From positions 1-44,206 of the forward strand of contig SUVT01000013.1 of the NCBI GenBank assembly GCA_015061845.1: a stretch of 44,206 nucleotides of DNA, read 5' to 3'. Shown in pieces: positions 3 through 13,243 of this stretch. A program made the translations under genes and the position numbers. The DNA comes from Lentisphaerota bacterium. GTDB lineage: Bacteria; Verrucomicrobiota; Lentisphaeria; Victivallales; UBA1829. Every line of letters starts with the position of its first letter. Position 1 is the stretch's first letter. A model generated the notes under the pieces. The model made no database searches. It saw nothing but the letters and a program-made list of their open reading frames with translations, and had not been told where the DNA came from.

Positions 3-632
3 ATGGAAGTTATTGAAGCCGTAACCGATGTGGTCAAAGCTCACCATTGGCAGATTCTTGACGAGAACTTCGGTCTGGCTCGTGAAGGACAGAAGATGTT
101 CGGCGTAATGCGGATCAACAAAAGCAAAAGTTCCGATTGGAGCCGTTGTATCGGTCTCAGAAATAGCCACGACAAAAGTTTTGCTGTCGGACTGTCGGCA
201 GGTATCAATGTTACGGTGTGCAGTAATCTTGCATTTGGAGGAACAACGGTCATTAAACGGCGACATACCAGCAGAATCGAATTGACCGAACTTGTCGATG
301 TCGCAGTAACTGAACTCGAAAACGAATTTCTGACATTGGAAACGGTTTGCGAAGATCTAAAAGTCATTTATTTGAAGAATGACGATGAAGCCAGAAGCCG
401 AATTGTCAGAGCGGCGGAATTGGGGGCAATCAACAGTTCTGATATTCTGCCCGTCTTCCATGAGTTCAAGAACCCCACCCATGAAGCTTTTGCAGAACCG
501 ACCAGATGGAGTTTGTTGAATGCGTTTACTCAAGTGAACCAGAAGTATACACCTCTGCGTGCTGATCAATCGTTCTCTGCATTAAACAAATGCTTTGGTC
601 TTGACGGTAATAGACCTTTACTTTGGAGCTGA
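3..632 (+). CDS. DUF932-type phage/plasmid-related protein, probably 5'-truncated
   Basis: This 209-residue reading frame begins at the window edge, so the true start probably lies outside. The middle carries VGLSAGINVTVCSNLAFGG followed by a basic RRHTSR stretch. Near the C-terminus is a THEAF...RWSLLNAFTQVNQKY block. Both patterns are typical of DUF932 (TIGR03299-like) proteins, which occur mainly on phages, plasmids and integrated elements. Family members have no settled biochemical role, so I give none. The next gene on the same strand is the small membrane protein at 945, after about 310 untranslated bases. It supports the view that the left end of the window is a mobile or formerly mobile region. 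Confidence 0.7.
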   Translation: MEVIEAVTDVVKAHHWQILDENFGLAREGQKMFGVMRINKSKSSDWSRCIGLRNSHDKSFAVGLSAGINVTVCSNLAFGGTTVIKRRHTSRIELTELVDVAVTELENEFLTLETVCEDLKVIYLKNDDEARSRIVRAAELGAINSSDILPVFHEFKNPTHEAFAEPTRWSLLNAFTQVNQKYTPLRADQSFSALNKCFGLDGNRPLLWS

Positions 633-944: not shown

Positions 945-1097
945 ATGGAGAATGAAGATGAGAACCGCGACCATAATCCGCTTAAGGATAATCAAGATGA
1001 TTCTTGGATTATTACTGCATTGACAACCGCTTTTGTCGCCGGTGTCGGAGCAACTATCGCAGCGATCAAGCTGGTCAGCAAGCTCGTAAACAAATAA
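945..1097 (+). CDS. 50-residue single-span membrane miniprotein
   Basis: ATG at 945 follows AAGGAG with 6 bases between, and the frame runs 50 codons to TAA. The N-terminal 20 residues are acidic and polar (MENEDENRDHN...). Residues 22-41 form one hydrophobic, glycine- and alanine-rich span (WIITALTTAFVAGVGATIAA). The tail is short and basic (IKLVSKLVNK). That layout fits a single-pass inner-membrane peptide with N-out or N-in topology undecided. A strong intrinsic terminator begins 5 bases after the stop, which supports real expression. I do not recognise a family; toxin-like, holin-like and small regulatory peptides of phage elements share the same general shape. Confidence 0.6.
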   Translation: MENEDENRDHNPLKDNQDDSWIITALTTAFVAGVGATIAAIKLVSKLVNK

Positions 1098-1102
1098 CCA
1101 CA

Positions 1103-1146
1103 CCCCTCTGCCGGAGCTAATCCGGCAGAGGGGGCATCTATTTTTT
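1103..1146 (+). terminator. Intrinsic terminator after the 50-residue gene
   Basis: CCCCTCTGCCGGA (1103-1115) pairs perfectly with TCCGGCAGAGGGG (1121-1133) around a 5-base loop. The stem is followed by a T tract (1141-1146) a few bases downstream. The T tract is on the plus-strand side only, so it ends the small gene rather than the opposing operon. Confidence 0.85.
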
Positions 1147-1160
1147 GCCACATACAAATG

Positions 1161-3044
1161 TTATAATGTAAATATTCCTTTGGGCGGAGTATAGTTATGA
1201 TATTTGAATTTACCTATTGTAAAATCTTGTATAATAGCCTTCATTCTTAAAGTTTCTGCTGTTATAAAACTTGCAAGATCAAGGATATATTCTTCTTTTT
1301 CTCTTGGGGCTTGATCACGCAGCTGATTTGTTACTCCAACAGCAAGTTCTGAAACAGCTTTGTATAAGGCTTTATTGAGTTTCTCCTGCCATTTATCCAA
1401 CTCACTGCGTTCAAAATTGACAAGATACGATTTCATCCACAGGGATTTTCCGCGACGTTCAGTTGTGCTGGCAGATTCCAAAAATACTTTTATTTGCTCA
1501 AGATAAGCATTGATTGCATCTTCTGCTTTCTGGGAACAACACAACAGTTTCCTGATCTTTTGAATATCCGGAGATATCGAGTCAACATCCTGCATAATTA
1601 TTTTACCGCAAATATCCGACTTCCAATCTTCTGCTTCAACAGACCCTTTCAATTCAGCCAGAGGAGTATTATCATCAAGATTGCTGCTTTTGTATATTGC
1701 CTGATAAAGATCAATCAAAAGGCATCGGATACGGCCTTCAAAGTATTGACCTATGGAGTTGAATAATTGGTTCCCGTCAAGATATTCTTTCAGGTCTTGC
1801 CTATAACAATCCTCATCCCATGGAAGCAAATTATTATAAACGAAAGGCGTCTTTTGTCCGATACAATCTTTGAGCAGATCATATTTCAGTTTTGCATCTT
1901 TCGCATTCGATTCTTTGTAAATCTGACTCAATGCCATTCCATTCAGATCGGCATTATAGTCTTCATGCAGCAACAATTTAAGACAGTATTCTGCAGACTG
2001 CCGACATCCCATCGCCTGTTCAGTTTGTCCTTTGTCGGCAAACATCTTAATAAGTTGGCAGTAGCGAAATGAGCAAGTTTGGATTATTTCCAAATCAAAT
2101 CCGGCGATCTTGCGAGCATAGTCGATTCTTCTCTTCATTTCTTCAGGATTATCTTCGTAAAACAGGGATGAATCGATATAGGCCGAGGCCGCAATTATAT
2201 CTTCCCGCAAAAGTTGAACTTCACTGTGTTTGGCGACAAATTCATCCAGTGCCGTTTTTGCTTCATTACGATAATAATTATAAATACCACTGTTGGGCTT
2301 TCTGGGATTGATGCGGCGTTCCTTTTCATCTGGTCCTAATTTACGATAAAGCTCCGAAGTCTCCAGAGCCGCTCTGGCAAGATAATACCAAAATAAAGGA
2401 TATGCTTGAAATTTATCCCTCAACAAGTCCAAACGAATATAACGACTCTGTGGATCGGGATCTGCAACCGCATTGTTGTAAATAGTTATCTGCTTTTCGG
2501 TCAACCGTAATTCATCCGGAAACTTATAGTGATCTGAAAGTCTCCAAGCTGTTTCAAAAAGAGTTCTGCGTAAATTATGAAGTTGTTCCAAGGCACTTTT
2601 CTCCAGTTCCCATGCCTCGGCTTCATTTTCCATCAACGCTTTATTCTTCTCCGATTTATAACTTATTACAGCAGCTCCCAGCATAATTCCTGCTGTTGCT
2701 GCAATGCTCCAGGGATTAGGATTACTGAAGATTGCAATTACCCGACCTCCATTTGCCAAGGCATTTGTGAGAGCACTTTTCATACGGGCTGCTTGCTTCT
2801 TTTTCAACAACTCCTTATCTTTCTCATGAAGGATGTAAAAATGGCAGGTGTCGAGAATCTTTTTCAATGCTTCAAGCATTGCTTCATCCTTGATAATATT
2901 CTCTATATTCAAATTATTGAGTATGGCATCATATTCCTGTTTGAGAATATTTATATCATTATAATCAACGATTTGCGACAATGACACCATGCACATATTT
3001 AATGCATAAGCGGCTTTCAATTGTTCATTGTTTGTTGTATTCAT
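1161..3044 (-). CDS. Unknown 627-residue helical protein with one membrane segment
   Basis: I do not recognise the family. The protein is rich in Leu, Glu, Lys and Ala and looks almost entirely alpha-helical. A basic helix (about residues 75-95) leads into one clear hydrophobic span (about 112-129, IAATAGIMLGAAVISY), followed by a long helical C-terminal part with repeat-like Ala/Leu/Tyr patterns that could be TPR-like. There is no signal peptide. It is the last gene of a three-gene operon, starting 14 bases after the EEP enzyme, with AGGAG in the gap (the plus strand reads actcctg near 3050). One possible job is a membrane platform for the EEP enzyme, but that is inference from gene order alone. 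Confidence 0.75.
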   Translation of the reverse strand: MNTTNNEQLKAAYALNMCMVSLSQIVDYNDINILKQEYDAILNNLNIENIIKDEAMLEALKKILDTCHFYILHEKDKELLKKKQAARMKSALTNALANGGRVIAIFSNPNPWSIAATAGIMLGAAVISYKSEKNKALMENEAEAWELEKSALEQLHNLRRTLFETAWRLSDHYKFPDELRLTEKQITIYNNAVADPDPQSRYIRLDLLRDKFQAYPLFWYYLARAALETSELYRKLGPDEKERRINPRKPNSGIYNYYRNEAKTALDEFVAKHSEVQLLREDIIAASAYIDSSLFYEDNPEEMKRRIDYARKIAGFDLEIIQTCSFRYCQLIKMFADKGQTEQAMGCRQSAEYCLKLLLHEDYNADLNGMALSQIYKESNAKDAKLKYDLLKDCIGQKTPFVYNNLLPWDEDCYRQDLKEYLDGNQLFNSIGQYFEGRIRCLLIDLYQAIYKSSNLDDNTPLAELKGSVEAEDWKSDICGKIIMQDVDSISPDIQKIRKLLCCSQKAEDAINAYLEQIKVFLESASTTERRGKSLWMKSYLVNFERSELDKWQEKLNKALYKAVSELAVGVTNQLRDQAPREKEEYILDLASFITAETLRMKAIIQDFTIGKFKYHNYTPPKGIFTL

Positions 3045-3058
3045 AGAAAACTCCTGTT

Positions 3059-4108
3059 TTAAAAGCTGATTTTCATTTTAATCGGGATATGATCGGAAAC
3101 AGTTACTGTTTTATTTGATTTATTTAACGTAAAATTATCATTTTCTACGCCTATTGTTTTAGCTCCGTCATGGACAAAATTCGCTATCCTCTCTTCATTA
3201 TAGGCGAAATGGTCATAATTACTTTTAAACGTCATACTGTTTTGTTCCGCATCCCACTTACACGTGGAAGGAGCATTTTGAACCGTTATCATTCCTTCTA
3301 TGGAATTGCCTATTTCAGCGGCACTTAAATTGAAATCACCTGCTACAAATGTATATACTGAATTGAAAGATCCCGTACGCAATTCATTGACCTTATTGTG
3401 CAATGTACGTTGGATAAAATTCATCTCTTCCATACGTATTTGCTTTGCAGTCTTTTCATCACTTTTGCCCTTGCTCCACTGGGTATGCGTATTGATAATC
3501 CTGATCTCATGAAGTAAAGAACCGAACATACCTGATGGTCTGAAGCAGGCGATTAATGGCGGACGCAACGTTTGATGCAGTGTATTGCGAAGTGTCGAAC
3601 GGTATTTGCTCAAAGCTTCTCCTTGAGGCAACCTTGCGAAAAGCCCGGAGTTCAAACCGGTTTGACTGGTCATGCTTTTGTAAGTTTCCACCAGAATATC
3701 AATGAGATGTTCGATGAATGAATCCCATTCCTTCTTTTCGATGTCATCTAACGCTTTATAGAGAGCTTTATCTCCATAGAGGTATACTTTGTCGGTGTTC
3801 CAAATAAAACCGTAATCACTCTTAAATTTAGCTCCATTACGGTTTAATATTCCGGCATCATTCAGTTCCTGATATAAAGATCCGCAATGACAATATTGAT
3901 ATGGAGATTCGTTGTCGTTGCCATTTAGGTAATGAATAATTCTCGAAACGGCATCATCCGTTTGGATTTCCTGAAGTGCAATAATATCAAATCCTTCATG
4001 ACGTATGATGTCAGCAATTTTACGACATTTGTCTTCTTTGAAATTGCTCTTTTCGTCATCTTTTGTGTTAAGATTCAAAACATTAAAGGATCCTAAAATG
4101 ATATCCAT
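3059..4108 (-). CDS. Endonuclease/exonuclease/phosphatase (EEP) fold enzyme
   Basis: The 349-residue protein has the full EEP signature in order: FN at 8-9, the metal-binding Glu in LQE (E47), NTH with H208, GDFN with D258 and N260, NYDH at 297-300, and the C-terminal SDH with D339 and H340. All expected catalytic and metal ligands are therefore present and the enzyme is probably an active phosphodiesterase or nuclease. The fold alone does not tell DNA, RNA, phospholipid or inositol-phosphate substrates apart. There is no signal peptide, so it acts in the cytoplasm. An insert at about 100-195 separates the two halves of the core. It sits between two membrane proteins, 7 and 14 bases from its neighbours, so the three are surely co-transcribed. 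Confidence 0.9.
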   Translation of the reverse strand: MDIILGSFNVLNLNTKDDEKSNFKEDKCRKIADIIRHEGFDIIALQEIQTDDAVSRIIHYLNGNDNESPYQYCHCGSLYQELNDAGILNRNGAKFKSDYGFIWNTDKVYLYGDKALYKALDDIEKKEWDSFIEHLIDILVETYKSMTSQTGLNSGLFARLPQGEALSKYRSTLRNTLHQTLRPPLIACFRPSGMFGSLLHEIRIINTHTQWSKGKSDEKTAKQIRMEEMNFIQRTLHNKVNELRTGSFNSVYTFVAGDFNLSAAEIGNSIEGMITVQNAPSTCKWDAEQNSMTFKSNYDHFAYNEERIANFVHDGAKTIGVENDNFTLNKSNKTVTVSDHIPIKMKISF

Positions 4109-4115
4109 TTCAGCC

Positions 4116-4763
4116 TCAAACGTTTAGAGTGTCCCATGTAGTCAAAACAGCTTGTTCTTCCTCTGAATATTCACCGTCACAGCAACTTATCATAATTATC
4201 AAATTACGGAATATATCCTTGTCGCAGCCAGGAACGTCATTTATATATTCAATGGCCTCTTGCAATTTGGGCGGATGACTTAGAAAATCATTGATTCTAT
4301 CCTTTCGGCTCTGTGCCATATTGGAGGCTTGTGCGGATTGTATAATAGCAGCCAATTTGGACTTTTCATCATCCGAAATGTGCCCATCATATCCGGCAGT
4401 GGCAGTTGCTATTGCCGCCAAAGCGAACAACATATTTTCACGCTCGTCATCGTTGCAATTATCATCAAAAGCCGAGTAGCGCTCAACAAATTGTTTTTGA
4501 GCCTCTTCGAATTTTGCAATAACTTCAGCCTTTTGCTGCTCTGCTTCTGCATTGGCAGCAGCATCTTGAGCTTTCTTCTTATCGACAAAATGTTTAACAG
4601 CCAACCCACCCACTATACCTGCTGCCGCAACAGGAGCAATAGAGATTGCAGCCACTCCCCCTGCTATGTAACCGGCAGTTTTCAAATTCTCTTTCAGGCC
4701 TTCTTTATTTTCAACAACATCCTTCTTTATTTTCGCAACAGCTTTGTCAAAAAAACTCTTCAT
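4116..4763 (-). CDS. TerB-like membrane protein
   Basis: Start chosen at 4763: GGAG lies 7 bases upstream and the protein becomes hydrophobic-then-helical at once. The open frame continues upstream to 4940, but those 59 extra residues have no ribosome-binding site and an odd Cys/Trp/Arg-rich composition. The 215-residue product has a basic amphipathic N-terminus, a glycine/alanine membrane segment (about 31-57), a charged coiled coil (about 60-95) and a C-terminal TerB-like domain (about 105-215). The TerB domain shows the paired acidic motifs YDGHISDDE (D126, E133) and CDGEYSEEE (D196, E198). TerB proteins bind divalent metal and act at the inner face of the membrane in stress and tellurite/phage-resistance modules. 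It is the first gene of the operon with the EEP enzyme. Confidence 0.8.
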   Translation of the reverse strand: MKSFFDKAVAKIKKDVVENKEGLKENLKTAGYIAGGVAAISIAPVAAAGIVGGLAVKHFVDKKKAQDAAANAEAEQQKAEVIAKFEEAQKQFVERYSAFDDNCNDDERENMLFALAAIATATAGYDGHISDDEKSKLAAIIQSAQASNMAQSRKDRINDFLSHPPKLQEAIEYINDVPGCDKDIFRNLIIMISCCDGEYSEEEQAVLTTWDTLNV

Positions 4764-5050
4764 CTCGTTTCTCCGTTTCAACACAGATCCGGACCAATAA
4801 AGAGGGCGTACATCAAAGCTCGGGTAAGAGGTACGCCAATACCCACAACACAAACAATGAATACGCCCGAATAACATCGGACGCATCCTTTCCATTGTTG
4901 TGTTGTAGAAATAATTTGGCGTTTTCTTATCATTCAACAAAAAAGATACGAATCAATCTATCTTCAATTTTATTTTTAATGCAGCTTCTCTATTTCGTCA
5001 ATAATCTGCTTCTCCTGTTTAATGATACCGGACCACCCGGAATCTTTCTC
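4764..5050 (-). other. Long 5' leader of the TerB/EEP operon with repeated GGCGTAC sites
   Basis: If the promoter at 5052-5079 is right, the operon has a leader of about 280 bases. It contains an inverted repeat GGCGTAC (4805-4811) / GTACGCC (4831-4837) with a 19-base spacer, plus a third related copy TACGCCC near 4862-4868. These could bind a regulator or fold in the mRNA. No gene with a ribosome-binding site is apparent in it. Confidence 0.35.
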
Positions 5051-5051
5051 T

Positions 5052-5079
5052 AATATACACCTTGAAATCTGAAATTCAA
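5052..5079 (-). promoter_or_regulatory. Candidate promoter of the TerB/EEP operon
   Basis: On the minus strand TTGAAT (5079-5074), a 16-base spacer and TATATT (5057-5052) match the promoter form used throughout this window. Transcription would start near 5045 and run into the TerB-like gene. Confidence 0.5.
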
Positions 5080-5128
5080 TAAACAACTCCATAATAGTTC
5101 TACAAAATCCGTGGCACCTATCAAGCAG

Positions 5129-5163
5129 CATAGCGGGGAGCCGTTGTTGCGCTCCCCGCTATG
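5129..5163. repeat. Hairpin 1: 13-bp arms, 9-base CGTTGTTGC loop
   Basis: The arm at 5129-5141 pairs perfectly with 5151-5163. The loop is the same nine bases as in hairpin 3 (5234-5266). The arms differ from those of hairpin 3 at four positions, and each change is matched on the other arm. No T tract follows on either strand, so a simple terminator is unlikely. Confidence 0.8.
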
Positions 5164-5176
5164 GAATAAAAAGAGA

Positions 5177-5210
5177 GACTTTCCCGGCTGCAATCAGAGC
5201 CGGGAAAGTC
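5177..5210. repeat. Hairpin 2: perfect 13-bp arms, 8-base loop
   Basis: GACTTTCCCGGCT (5177-5189) pairs with AGCCGGGAAAGTC (5198-5210). On the minus strand the stem is followed by TCTCTTTTTATT, so it might act as a terminator in that direction. Its loop differs from those of its two neighbours. Confidence 0.7.
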
Positions 5211-5233
5211 ATAACAGGAGAATGTATGATAAA

Positions 5234-5266
5234 ATGGATGGGAACCGTTGTTGCGTTCCCATCCAT
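5234..5266. repeat. Hairpin 3: perfect 12-bp arms, 9-base CGTTGTTGC loop
   Basis: ATGGATGGGAAC (5234-5245) pairs with GTTCCCATCCAT (5255-5266). The loop is identical to that of hairpin 1 and the arm is a compensated variant of it (8 of 12 arm bases shared). A 16-codon frame with AGGAG upstream (ATG at 5226) runs through it, but its coding status is doubtful. Confidence 0.8.
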
Positions 5267-5289
5267 GGGATGTTAAAGACACATAGGAT

Positions 5290-5319
5290 ATTGCGGGGTA
5301 GAGCAGTGGCAGCTTGTCA
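5290..5319 (+). repeat. Inverted half-copy of the tRNA-fMet gene
   Basis: These 30 bases match the 5' half of the intact tRNA-fMet (5637-5608 on the minus strand) with a single T-to-C change. The match covers the base before the gene, acceptor strand, D arm and the start of the anticodon stem, then stops abruptly. It lies in the opposite orientation about 240 bp away. It may be the remnant of a second tRNA gene broken by integration or a tRNA-derived attachment-site relic. Confidence 0.75.
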
Positions 5320-5520
5320 AATAAATAAGATTACTTGACTTTTGTCAAAGATGGTGTTATTGTAATATCAGGCGGGATTTTGCACACATTTTGCACACAG
5401 ATTGAACACAAAAGACAGCAAATTACCCGATTTTCGGTATCAACAGAAGATAATCTTAATACAACAAAGGCAGCGTGGAAAAACAAGGCGTTTCTGCTGT
5501 AACTTTCTGAATTTGAACAT
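5320..5520. other. Short gene-free gap between tRNA half-copy and tRNA-fMet
   Basis: Nothing with gene features is visible. The piece TTTTGCACACA occurs twice in close succession (about 5380-5400). Confidence 0.4.
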
Positions 5521-5551
5521 AAAAAAAGGGATTTACGACTTGTAAATCCCT
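5521..5551 (-). terminator. Intrinsic terminator of tRNA-fMet
   Basis: On the minus strand AGGGATTTA (5551-5543) pairs with TAAATCCCT (5535-5527) around a 7-base loop and is followed by a run of T (5527-5521). It lies about 10 bases beyond the tRNA 3' end. Confidence 0.85.
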
Positions 5552-5561
5552 GGATTTTCGA

Positions 5562-5636
5562 TGGTAGCGGGGGTTGGAATTGAACCAACGACCTTCAGGT
5601 TATGAGCCTGACAAGCTACCACTGCTCTACCCCGCA
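5562..5636 (-). tRNA. Initiator tRNA-fMet (CAT)
   Basis: A 75-base cloverleaf with encoded CCA. The anticodon loop is CTCATAA. The first acceptor base is T and faces T at position 72, so the end pair is open, as in bacterial initiators (C1-A72 in E. coli). The D stem has the initiator-type A11-T24 pair (GAGC/GCTT). The T stem is GTTGG/CCAAC. The anticodon stem has two, not three, adjacent G-C pairs next to the loop (CAGG/CCTG), a deviation from the usual initiator. A consensus promoter lies 35-70 bases upstream and a terminator directly downstream, so it is a single-gene unit. Confidence 0.9.
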
Positions 5637-5677
5637 ATAACTCAAATCATATTAACATGATTCGTTCAATATCCAGT

Positions 5678-12079: not shown

Positions 12080-13243
12080 TTAGAATGATTTTGACATGTC
12101 CTCAGCAGTAGCGGCTGCAGAAACTGTTTTTTTCTGATAACGGCTGGTCGCAATGAGCTTTTCAAGTTCACCCGCAAATTCATCTGCATCCATGGGCAAA
12201 GTGACGACTTTGTCTTTCAAGCCTGCAAGCAGCATGGAGTTTCCGAGTTCAAGACCCCGGATCCCTTCTTCCATGGGAGCGATGAGGGGAGTATCTTTGA
12301 GAATTGCGTTGGCAACGTTTTCGATGACGTTGCGGTGCTGATGGGTATCGCCATAAAAGGGGATTTCGCACTTCCAGTTATCAGAAATTCCGAATGTCTT
12401 ATCGGTGTTTTTGATAAAATCAGATGTTTCGATTTCGTTACGGATAAAGAGGAGTTCCCCGCGTTCGTAGGTGAGTTTTCCTCTTTCAGCCACGATTTCC
12501 AACCGGTTGGTTCCGGGCATTTCACCGGTGGAAGCAATAAAGTTTCCTACGGTTCCGTTTTCATACTCCATATAGACGTTGACTTCATCTTCGACTTCGA
12601 TATCGTGATATTTTCCGAGTTTGACCACGCCGCGGACGGTTTTCGGGAGACCGAAGAACCACTGCCACAAGTCGAGCTGGTGGGGGCACTGATTCAGCAG
12701 GACGCCGCCGCCTTCACCTCTCCAGCTGGCGCGCCAGTCGCCGGAGTCGTAATATTTCTGGGAACGGAACCAGTCGGTAATGACCCAGTTGATGCGGTTG
12801 ATTTTGCCGAGGTCGCCGTTATCGATGAGCTGTTTGATCTTTTTATGAGCGGGCAGAGTGCGCTGGTTGAACATCAGGGATTTCTTCAGTTCCGGATGTT
12901 TTGCAGCTTCTGCGATCATGCGTTCCGCTTCTTTTTTATGAACGGCAATGGGTTTTTCAACGATAAGATGTTTTCCGTGCTGCATTGCCATGATGGCAAG
13001 ATCCGGATGGGAATAGTGAGGAACTGCAATGATAACGGCATCGATATCAGCTTCTTTGAAAAATGTTTCTGCATCTGTGAAGCATTTGACTTCCTTGCGG
13101 ATTTCCGGTCTCATACGGTCAAACGCCTTGGGATTGATATCGCAGACAGCGGTCAGTTTTGCATTTTTGAGTTCACTGATCGAAATCGTGTGTCCGGTTC
13201 CCATATTACCGATACCGATAATACCGAATTTTACAAAATCCAT
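12080..13243 (-). CDS. Gfo/Idh/MocA-family NAD(P)-dependent oxidoreductase
   Basis: The 387-residue protein starts with a Rossmann fold (GIIGIGNMGTGH, then AVCDINP at the end of strand 2) and has the family catalytic block EKPIA (HLIVEKPIAVHKKEA). A second conserved patch, GGGVLLNQCPHQLD, holds the His/Asp pair of the active site. This group oxidises or reduces sugar and inositol hydroxyls. Strong AAGGAG lies before the ATG. It is the first gene of a two-gene unit with the isomerase and is divergent from a GntR/LacI-type regulator. Confidence 0.95.
   Translation of the reverse strand: MDFVKFGIIGIGNMGTGHTISISELKNAKLTAVCDINPKAFDRMRPEIRKEVKCFTDAETFFKEADIDAVIIAVPHYSHPDLAIMAMQHGKHLIVEKPIAVHKKEAERMIAEAAKHPELKKSLMFNQRTLPAHKKIKQLIDNGDLGKINRINWVITDWFRSQKYYDSGDWRASWRGEGGGVLLNQCPHQLDLWQWFFGLPKTVRGVVKLGKYHDIEVEDEVNVYMEYENGTVGNFIASTGEMPGTNRLEIVAERGKLTYERGELLFIRNEIETSDFIKNTDKTFGISDNWKCEIPFYGDTHQHRNVIENVANAILKDTPLIAPMEEGIRGLELGNSMLLAGLKDKVVTLPMDADEFAGELEKLIATSRYQKKTVSAAATAEDMSKSF

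What the first reader, a model, noticed from the sequence alone, without database searches (positions are those of the whole stretch)
1161..4763. Uncharacterised three-gene operon: TerB-like membrane protein, EEP-fold phosphodiesterase/nuclease, large helical membrane protein
Seen: gaps of 7 and 14 bases, membrane segments in the two outer products, a full EEP catalytic set in the middle one (E47, H208, D258, N260, D339, H340), and paired acidic DG motifs in the TerB-like domain. Known: TerB-like proteins act at the inner membrane in Ter-type stress and phage-resistance modules, and EEP enzymes cut DNA, RNA or phosphodiester lipids. Inference: a membrane-tethered effector nuclease or lipid phosphodiesterase with a metal-sensing partner, perhaps anti-phage or stress defence, in a mobile-looking region. 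I know of no named system with this composition, but could not search.
Basis: partly seen in the sequence, partly recalled or inferred. Interest (0 to 1): 0.8.

Follow-up and report, generated by a model that had tools for sequence, protein, structure and literature searches.

The report
Mobile nuclease and helical-partner gene pair
Two adjacent genes, a DNA-cutting-type enzyme and a large helical partner protein, travel together between unrelated gut bacteria as a fixed pair that matches no catalogued defence system and probably guards cells against viruses, although no activity has been measured.

Summary
The three genes exist as described, but the real unit is two genes. The EEP (endonuclease/exonuclease/phosphatase-fold) enzyme and the 627-aa protein (here LHP, large helical partner) recur as a fixed pair, EEP directly upstream of LHP, in 9 of 9 distinct loci with readable upstream DNA. 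These span Lentisphaeria, a Kiritimatiellae-containing order and Oscillospirales/Bacillota. Their trees have the same topology, and in 145 genomes of one order strong EEP hits fall only in the five genomes that carry LHP. The catalytic residues are invariant, and the closest solved structure by sequence is DNase gamma. LHP has a TPR-like helical middle, a variable C-terminus and only a weak hydrophobic segment. The TM-TerB gene is an accessory: as part of the trio it is found only in a near-identical island of another genus. There the EEP-LHP block is 99.2% identical while the core DNA tested is 72% identical, so the pair moved recently. PADLOC-DB has no model for either protein. In two relatives the pair sits beside a BnzB-like (Bunzi defence) gene; an integrase lies near another. 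Best reading: a mobile nuclease/regulator module, probably anti-phage. Defence is inferred, not shown.

The parts
3059..4108 (-). EEP-fold nuclease, 349 aa, no signal peptide apparent; core gene 1 of the pair
   Evidence: Pfam Exo_endo_phos above gathering; all catalytic residues invariant in 9 distinct homologues; profile matches DNase gamma 3.4e-8
1161..3044 (-). LHP, 627 aa all-helical protein: conserved N-terminal ~290-400 aa, TPR-like solenoid at about residues 200-395, variable C-terminus; core gene 2 of the pair
   Evidence: 9 distinct homologues each directly downstream of an EEP; model pLDDT 70-89 in most blocks of the solenoid, low elsewhere; Foldseek gives TPR proteins, weak E 0.014 and worse
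4116..4763 (-). Accessory gene: Gly-rich hydrophobic segment plus TerB-like domain, 215 aa
   Evidence: DUF533 and TerB just below cut-offs; KD 2.08 segment; as part of the trio found only here and in G028
1152..4063 (-). Block 99.2% identical (22 mismatches) to G028, a genome of another genus; its edges lie close to the ends of the EEP-LHP pair
   Evidence: dS LHP 0.011, EEP 0.060, TerB 0.277; one long core gene 72% identical
945..5652 (.). Island segment shared with the G028 contig end; homology stops just past the tRNA-Met 5' end
5562..5636 (-). tRNA-Met; the island lies on its 3' side in both genomes
1103..1133 (-). Terminator-like hairpin (13-bp stem) 28 nt after the LHP stop codon
   Evidence: consensus scan only
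3..632 (+). DUF932 gene at the window edge, left neighbour of the island
   Evidence: Pfam DUF932 E 2.6e-10

Best explanation
This is a horizontally mobile two-gene module: a DNase I/MnuA-like EEP nuclease encoded directly upstream of a large helical TPR-like partner (LHP). In this island a TM-TerB protein has been added. Shown here: fixed pairing, co-inheritance, intact active site, recent transfer, absence from PADLOC-DB. Inferred mechanism: the nuclease is made without a signal peptide and acts on nucleic acid in the cytoplasm. LHP binds it and keeps it off, perhaps at the membrane through its hydrophobic segment and the membrane accessory protein. When LHP's variable C-terminal region senses phage infection or other invading DNA, the nuclease is switched on and nicks phage or host DNA, so the infection aborts. 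The direction of control by LHP (inhibitor or activator) is unknown.
For: EEP directly upstream of LHP (from 29-nt overlap to 14-nt gap) in 9 of 9 distinct loci with readable upstream DNA. In one order of 145 genomes the five with strong EEP hits are the same five that carry strong LHP hits (about 2e-9 if genomes were independent). Identical tree topologies, Mantel r 0.80, p 1.5e-4. Catalytic residues invariant with DNase gamma/MnuA as nearest relatives. Patchy distribution: 2 of 137 genomes of the own order, 5 strong hits of 162 in another order. EEP-LHP block 99.2% identical between genera. Neighbours: BnzB-like gene directly beside the pair in L048 and, with a TM-S1 gene, just upstream in L006; integrase in L033. 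A distant exported LHP relative is overlapped upstream by a secreted Endonuclease_NS gene in L055.
Against: No phage challenge or enzyme data exist. A BnzB-like neighbour is present in only 2 of 9 loci, and several loci (L011, L033, L049) have ordinary neighbours. No background rate for BnzB proximity was measured. The C-terminal variability of LHP could reflect loose constraint. LHP's membrane association is weak by hydropathy. Most distant LHP relatives have no adjacent nuclease.
Confidence: 0.5

Rival explanations
1. A toxin-antitoxin-like stabilisation module of mobile islands: EEP is a DNA-damaging toxin and LHP its proteinaceous neutraliser, serving island maintenance rather than phage sensing.
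For: Tight two-gene pairing, identical tree topologies and mobility next to a tRNA or integrase.
Against: A 627-959 aa partner is far larger than usual antitoxins (general knowledge), and the variable C-terminus suits a sensor better. The pair was not found on plasmids or phages.
Confidence: 0.17
2. A stress or envelope-linked phosphodiesterase: EEP hydrolyses a lipid, nucleotide or other phosphoester at the membrane, with TerB and LHP as stress sensors.
For: EEP enzymes include non-nucleases (fold hits include Bt3783 mannosyl-6-phosphatase and nocturnin); the TM-TerB neighbour; the DUF533 match.
Against: Sequence profiles put DNase gamma first (3.4e-8) and MnuA nucleases in all 6 members scanned; TerB is not conserved with the pair.
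Confidence: 0.12
3. A nucleic-acid scavenging or housekeeping nuclease of gut bacteria, like mycoplasma MnuA or secreted nucleases.
For: MnuA is the best NCBIfam match; exported LHP relatives exist, one next to a secreted Endonuclease_NS.
Against: This EEP starts at the catalytic core without a signal peptide; the distribution is sparse and horizontal rather than lineage-wide.
Confidence: 0.1
4. The three genes form a Ter-type or Bunzi/Shango-type system with TerB as an essential subunit.
For: TerB is reported in Shango and Bunzi (PMC10952713, PMC10250203); BnzB-like genes adjoin the pair in L006 and L048; TerB-DnaJ genes lie nearby in L012, L048 and L050.
Against: No BnzA/BnzB in the window trio, no helicase or ATPase of Shango in the trio; TerB-DnaJ relatives are found in 98 of 162 genomes, mostly without the pair; L011, L033, L047 and L049 show no TerB homologue of either kind near the pair.
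Confidence: 0.08

Closest known systems
MnuA-family membrane nuclease (NF045851) and DNase gamma/DNase I
   Same: EEP fold with the full catalytic set; all 6 members scanned match MnuA (best 2.7e-13) and the profile matches DNase gamma
   Different: Scores far below the MnuA cut-off (45.6 vs 185 bits); no signal or lipoprotein segment in most members; always paired with LHP
Bunzi anti-phage system (BnzA/BnzB; TerB listed as a domain in PMC10952713)
   Same: BnzB-like genes (E 1.3e-27 and 6e-26) stand beside the pair in two relatives; membrane proteins and TerB domains occur around both
   Different: The window trio has no BnzA/BnzB; no BnzB-like gene was seen beside the pair in the other 7 distinct loci; EEP and LHP match no Bunzi model
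Shango (TerB, ATPase, helicase; PMC10250203)
   Same: A TerB-like gene in a compact three-gene operon on a mobile island
   Different: No helicase and no ATPase; a nuclease and a TPR-like protein instead
Nuclease-plus-regulator immune pairs such as the protease-activated nuclease pair (PMC12799240, title and abstract only)
   Same: A predicted nuclease encoded next to a dedicated partner, acquired horizontally
   Different: Partner is a TPR-like helical protein, no protease domain detected; no adjoining constant sensor module in every locus

Membership tests
EEP superfamily (PF03372) | Profile score above gathering and conserved metal/catalytic residues (N, E, H, D-x-N, D, D-H) | tested here: met
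   26.7 vs 24.5 bits; N9, E47, H208, D258, N260, D299, D339, H340 invariant in 9 homologues
MnuA membrane nucleases (NF045851) | Score above the curated cut-off | tested here: not met
   45.6 vs 185 bits
DNase I-like DNases | DNA hydrolysis activity | not testable with these tools
   Only homology: DNase gamma 3.4e-8, DNase 1 0.0037 by profile
TerB (PF05099) | Score above gathering and acidic DG metal-site motifs | tested here: inconclusive
   23.2 vs 24.4 bits, just below; both DG motifs present in the sequence
Bunzi | BnzA and BnzB genes present | tested here: not met
   No such hit among the three window products; BnzB-like only in L006 and L048
Shango | TerB-like, ATPase and helicase genes together | tested here: not met
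   EEP and LHP have no significant helicase or ATPase match; definition from PMC10250203
Any system in PADLOC-DB 2.0.0 | Significant hit for EEP or LHP | tested here: not met
   None for EEP or LHP of the window at E 1, none for 7 LHP family members at 0.1
TPR proteins | Recognisable TPR repeats or solenoid fold | tested here: inconclusive
   Pfam TPR_2 in 2 members, best E 0.17; model solenoid at about 200-395 and weak TPR Foldseek hits
Anti-phage defence system | Protects cells against phage | not testable with these tools
   Needs phage challenge

The most novel reading that the evidence does not exclude
EEP-LHP is an undescribed family of anti-phage systems of gut bacteria in which a TPR-like sensor or regulator controls a dedicated nuclease, with swappable membrane accessories (TM-TerB, TM-S1 with BnzB) and, in exported relatives, a swapped nuclease (Endonuclease_NS in place of EEP).
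Probability: 0.42. Interest if true: 0.72.

Novelty: new variant of a known kind. Interest (0 to 1): 0.58.

Why it matters
EEP-fold nucleases are common enzymes, but I found none described as the effector of a dedicated two-gene bacterial immune module. The pair is compact, strictly co-inherited and mobile across at least two phyla of poorly studied gut bacteria, so it can be cloned and tested directly. If it protects, it adds an effector and regulator combination that current defence catalogues miss, and LHP becomes a marker for finding more such loci.

Tried and rejected
(1) Trio as the conserved unit: rejected, TerB is not kept with the pair. (2) TerB-DnaJ as a core subunit: it lies near the pair in L012, L048, L050/L051 and as a short remnant in L006, but relatives occur in 98 of 162 genomes and short N-terminal copies sit at locus edges, so it looks like a hotspot neighbour. 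(3) Viral, plasmid or phage carriage: no LHP match in plasmids or phages; viral-contig scans with LHP gave nothing, the EEP scan gave only an unrelated exported EEP (L016), and a motif scan gave five chance matches. (4) G624 LHP hit (E 9.6e-4): false positive inside another protein. (5) Halomonas and Photobacterium plasmid EEPs (24-28% identity): different EEPs, no LHP annotated or matched. (6) PDB sequence search with LHP: nothing. (7) Structure models: EEP mean pLDDT 55 and LHP 56, useful only for fold class; the EEP C-terminal part is poor, probably because only 4 sequences were aligned. (8) Literature: searches for EEP or exonuclease-phosphatase with phage defence found no paper describing this pair.

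Full report
OBSERVATION. The three minus-strand genes are present: TM-TerB 4763-4116, EEP 4108-3059, large protein (LHP) 3044-1161, with gaps of 7 and 14 nt. A terminator-like hairpin lies 28 nt after the LHP stop. EEP passes its Pfam gathering score; the TerB product is just under both the TerB and the DUF533 cut-offs; LHP has no significant match. PADLOC-DB has nothing convincing for any of the three. The TerB product has a Gly-rich hydrophobic segment (KD 2.08), but LHP's best segment is only 1.34; in relatives that segment ranges up to 2.04.

RELATIVES. LHP searches in the own order found only a copy in another genus. A phylum search and the genome collection gave distant relatives, and profile searches around those gave more. 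Reading all loci with EEP and LHP profiles showed that every strong LHP has an EEP directly upstream: window/L008 (Lentisphaeria), L011 (Ruminococcaceae UBA7101), L033 (G543, same order), L047 (G975, same phylum as L011), and L006/L013, L012, L048, L049, L050 (an order that also holds the Kiritimatiellae loci L014 and L015). L051 is cut by its contig end. Junctions run from a 29-nt overlap to a 14-nt gap.

CO-INHERITANCE. EEP and LHP trees of the 9 distinct loci have the same topology; pairwise identities correlate (r 0.80, Mantel p 1.5e-4). In 145 genomes of the G429 order, strong EEP hits occur in G429, G431, G1139, G1133 and G1170, exactly those with strong LHP hits. One marginal EEP hit (G1095, 9e-5) has no LHP. 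In the own class, strong EEP hits are confined to G000 and G028, the two genomes with LHP in the own order. These counts ignore relatedness among genomes and come from draft assemblies.

MOBILITY. The window and G028 share 945-5652 and then diverge, just beyond a tRNA-Met; the G028 contig ends at 945, so the left edge is not known. Identity is 99.2% across 1152-4063, about 90% in the TerB C-terminal domain, about 98-99% over the TerB start and its upstream part, and 76-88% towards the tRNA: a mosaic. dS is 0.011 for LHP, 0.060 for EEP and 0.277 for TerB; one long core gene is 72% identical. So the pair was recently exchanged between genera, with edges near those of the two genes. A DUF932 gene lies at the window edge, and L033 has a tyrosine-integrase gene next to the pair.

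ENZYME. EEP residues S7, N9, N12, Q46, E47, W103, R182, P184, H208, R225, E228, R244, G257, D258, N260, Q277, D299, H300, S338, D339, H340 and P342 are invariant in 9 homologues. Nearest families are MnuA (below cut-off) and, among solved structures, DNase gamma (3.4e-8). Foldseek on a low-confidence model gives EEP enzymes of several kinds. A nuclease is therefore favoured over a lipid enzyme, but substrate is untested. L048's EEP carries an N-terminal hydrophobic segment of its own.

PARTNER. LHP is predicted all-helical. Residues about 200-395 form a solenoid with pLDDT 70-89 in most blocks; the C-terminal third is low. Foldseek hits are TPR proteins with weak E-values. The N-terminal ~290 residues are the conserved part, the C-terminus differs in length and sequence. 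Distant relatives, several with apparent signal peptides (L007, L052-L057), lack EEP; one, L055, is overlapped upstream by a secreted Endonuclease_NS gene (E 4.1e-41).

NEIGHBOURS. L006 and L048 have a 421/429-aa BnzB-like gene (E 1.3e-27 and 6e-26) followed by a TM-S1 gene, upstream of the pair in L006 and 12 nt downstream in L048. SLFN_AlbA_2 or DUF4062 plus HATPase_c_4 genes occur in L006, L048 and L050, macro-domain genes in L012 and L047. TerB-DnaJ genes nearby look like hotspot markers. L011, L033 and L049 have no recognised defence neighbour.

MECHANISM AND VERDICT. Shown: pairing, co-inheritance, intact active site, recent transfer, no PADLOC match. Inferred: control of EEP by LHP, membrane placement, phage sensing, DNA damage as the outcome. 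Defence is the best-supported role (about 0.5), ahead of an addiction module, a stress phosphodiesterase and a scavenging nuclease. The library search found no description of this pair, but it holds only open-licence papers, and PADLOC-DB dates from 2023, so novelty is provisional.

Noticed in passing
window 5129-5269: Three near-perfect hairpins in series between the tRNA-Met and the TerB gene; two share the loop CCGTTGTTGCG (0.02 copies expected in the window) while stems differ in G028 with compensatory changes; fold z-score -8.9. Role unknown.
   Followed up: partly
window 5270-5319 and 5609-5658: Inverted 50-nt repeat, 80% complementary: a copy of the 5' half of tRNA-Met stands inverted about 290 nt away; a degenerate copy exists in G028.
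   Followed up: no
L055:1045-3643: Exported LHP relative overlapped upstream by a secreted DNA/RNA non-specific endonuclease gene, a possible second nuclease-LHP pairing.
   Followed up: partly
L006:5554-8671 and L048:6414-9646: BnzB-like gene followed by a TM plus S1-domain gene (616/654 aa) with no PADLOC BnzA match: a possible Bunzi variant.
   Followed up: partly
L048:10580-11326 and 13073-13190; L006:11958-12065: Short copies of the 5' part of the TerB-DnaJ gene at locus edges, as if the gene start were a recombination site.
   Followed up: partly
L006:4844-5449, L012:5409-5948, L050:6598-7143: A conserved ~180-200 aa protein of unknown family recurring near the pair.
   Followed up: no
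L047:4214-4807: 197-aa protein matching the PADLOC model 'cll' (E 5.4e-16), about 1.7 kb upstream of the pair.
   Followed up: no
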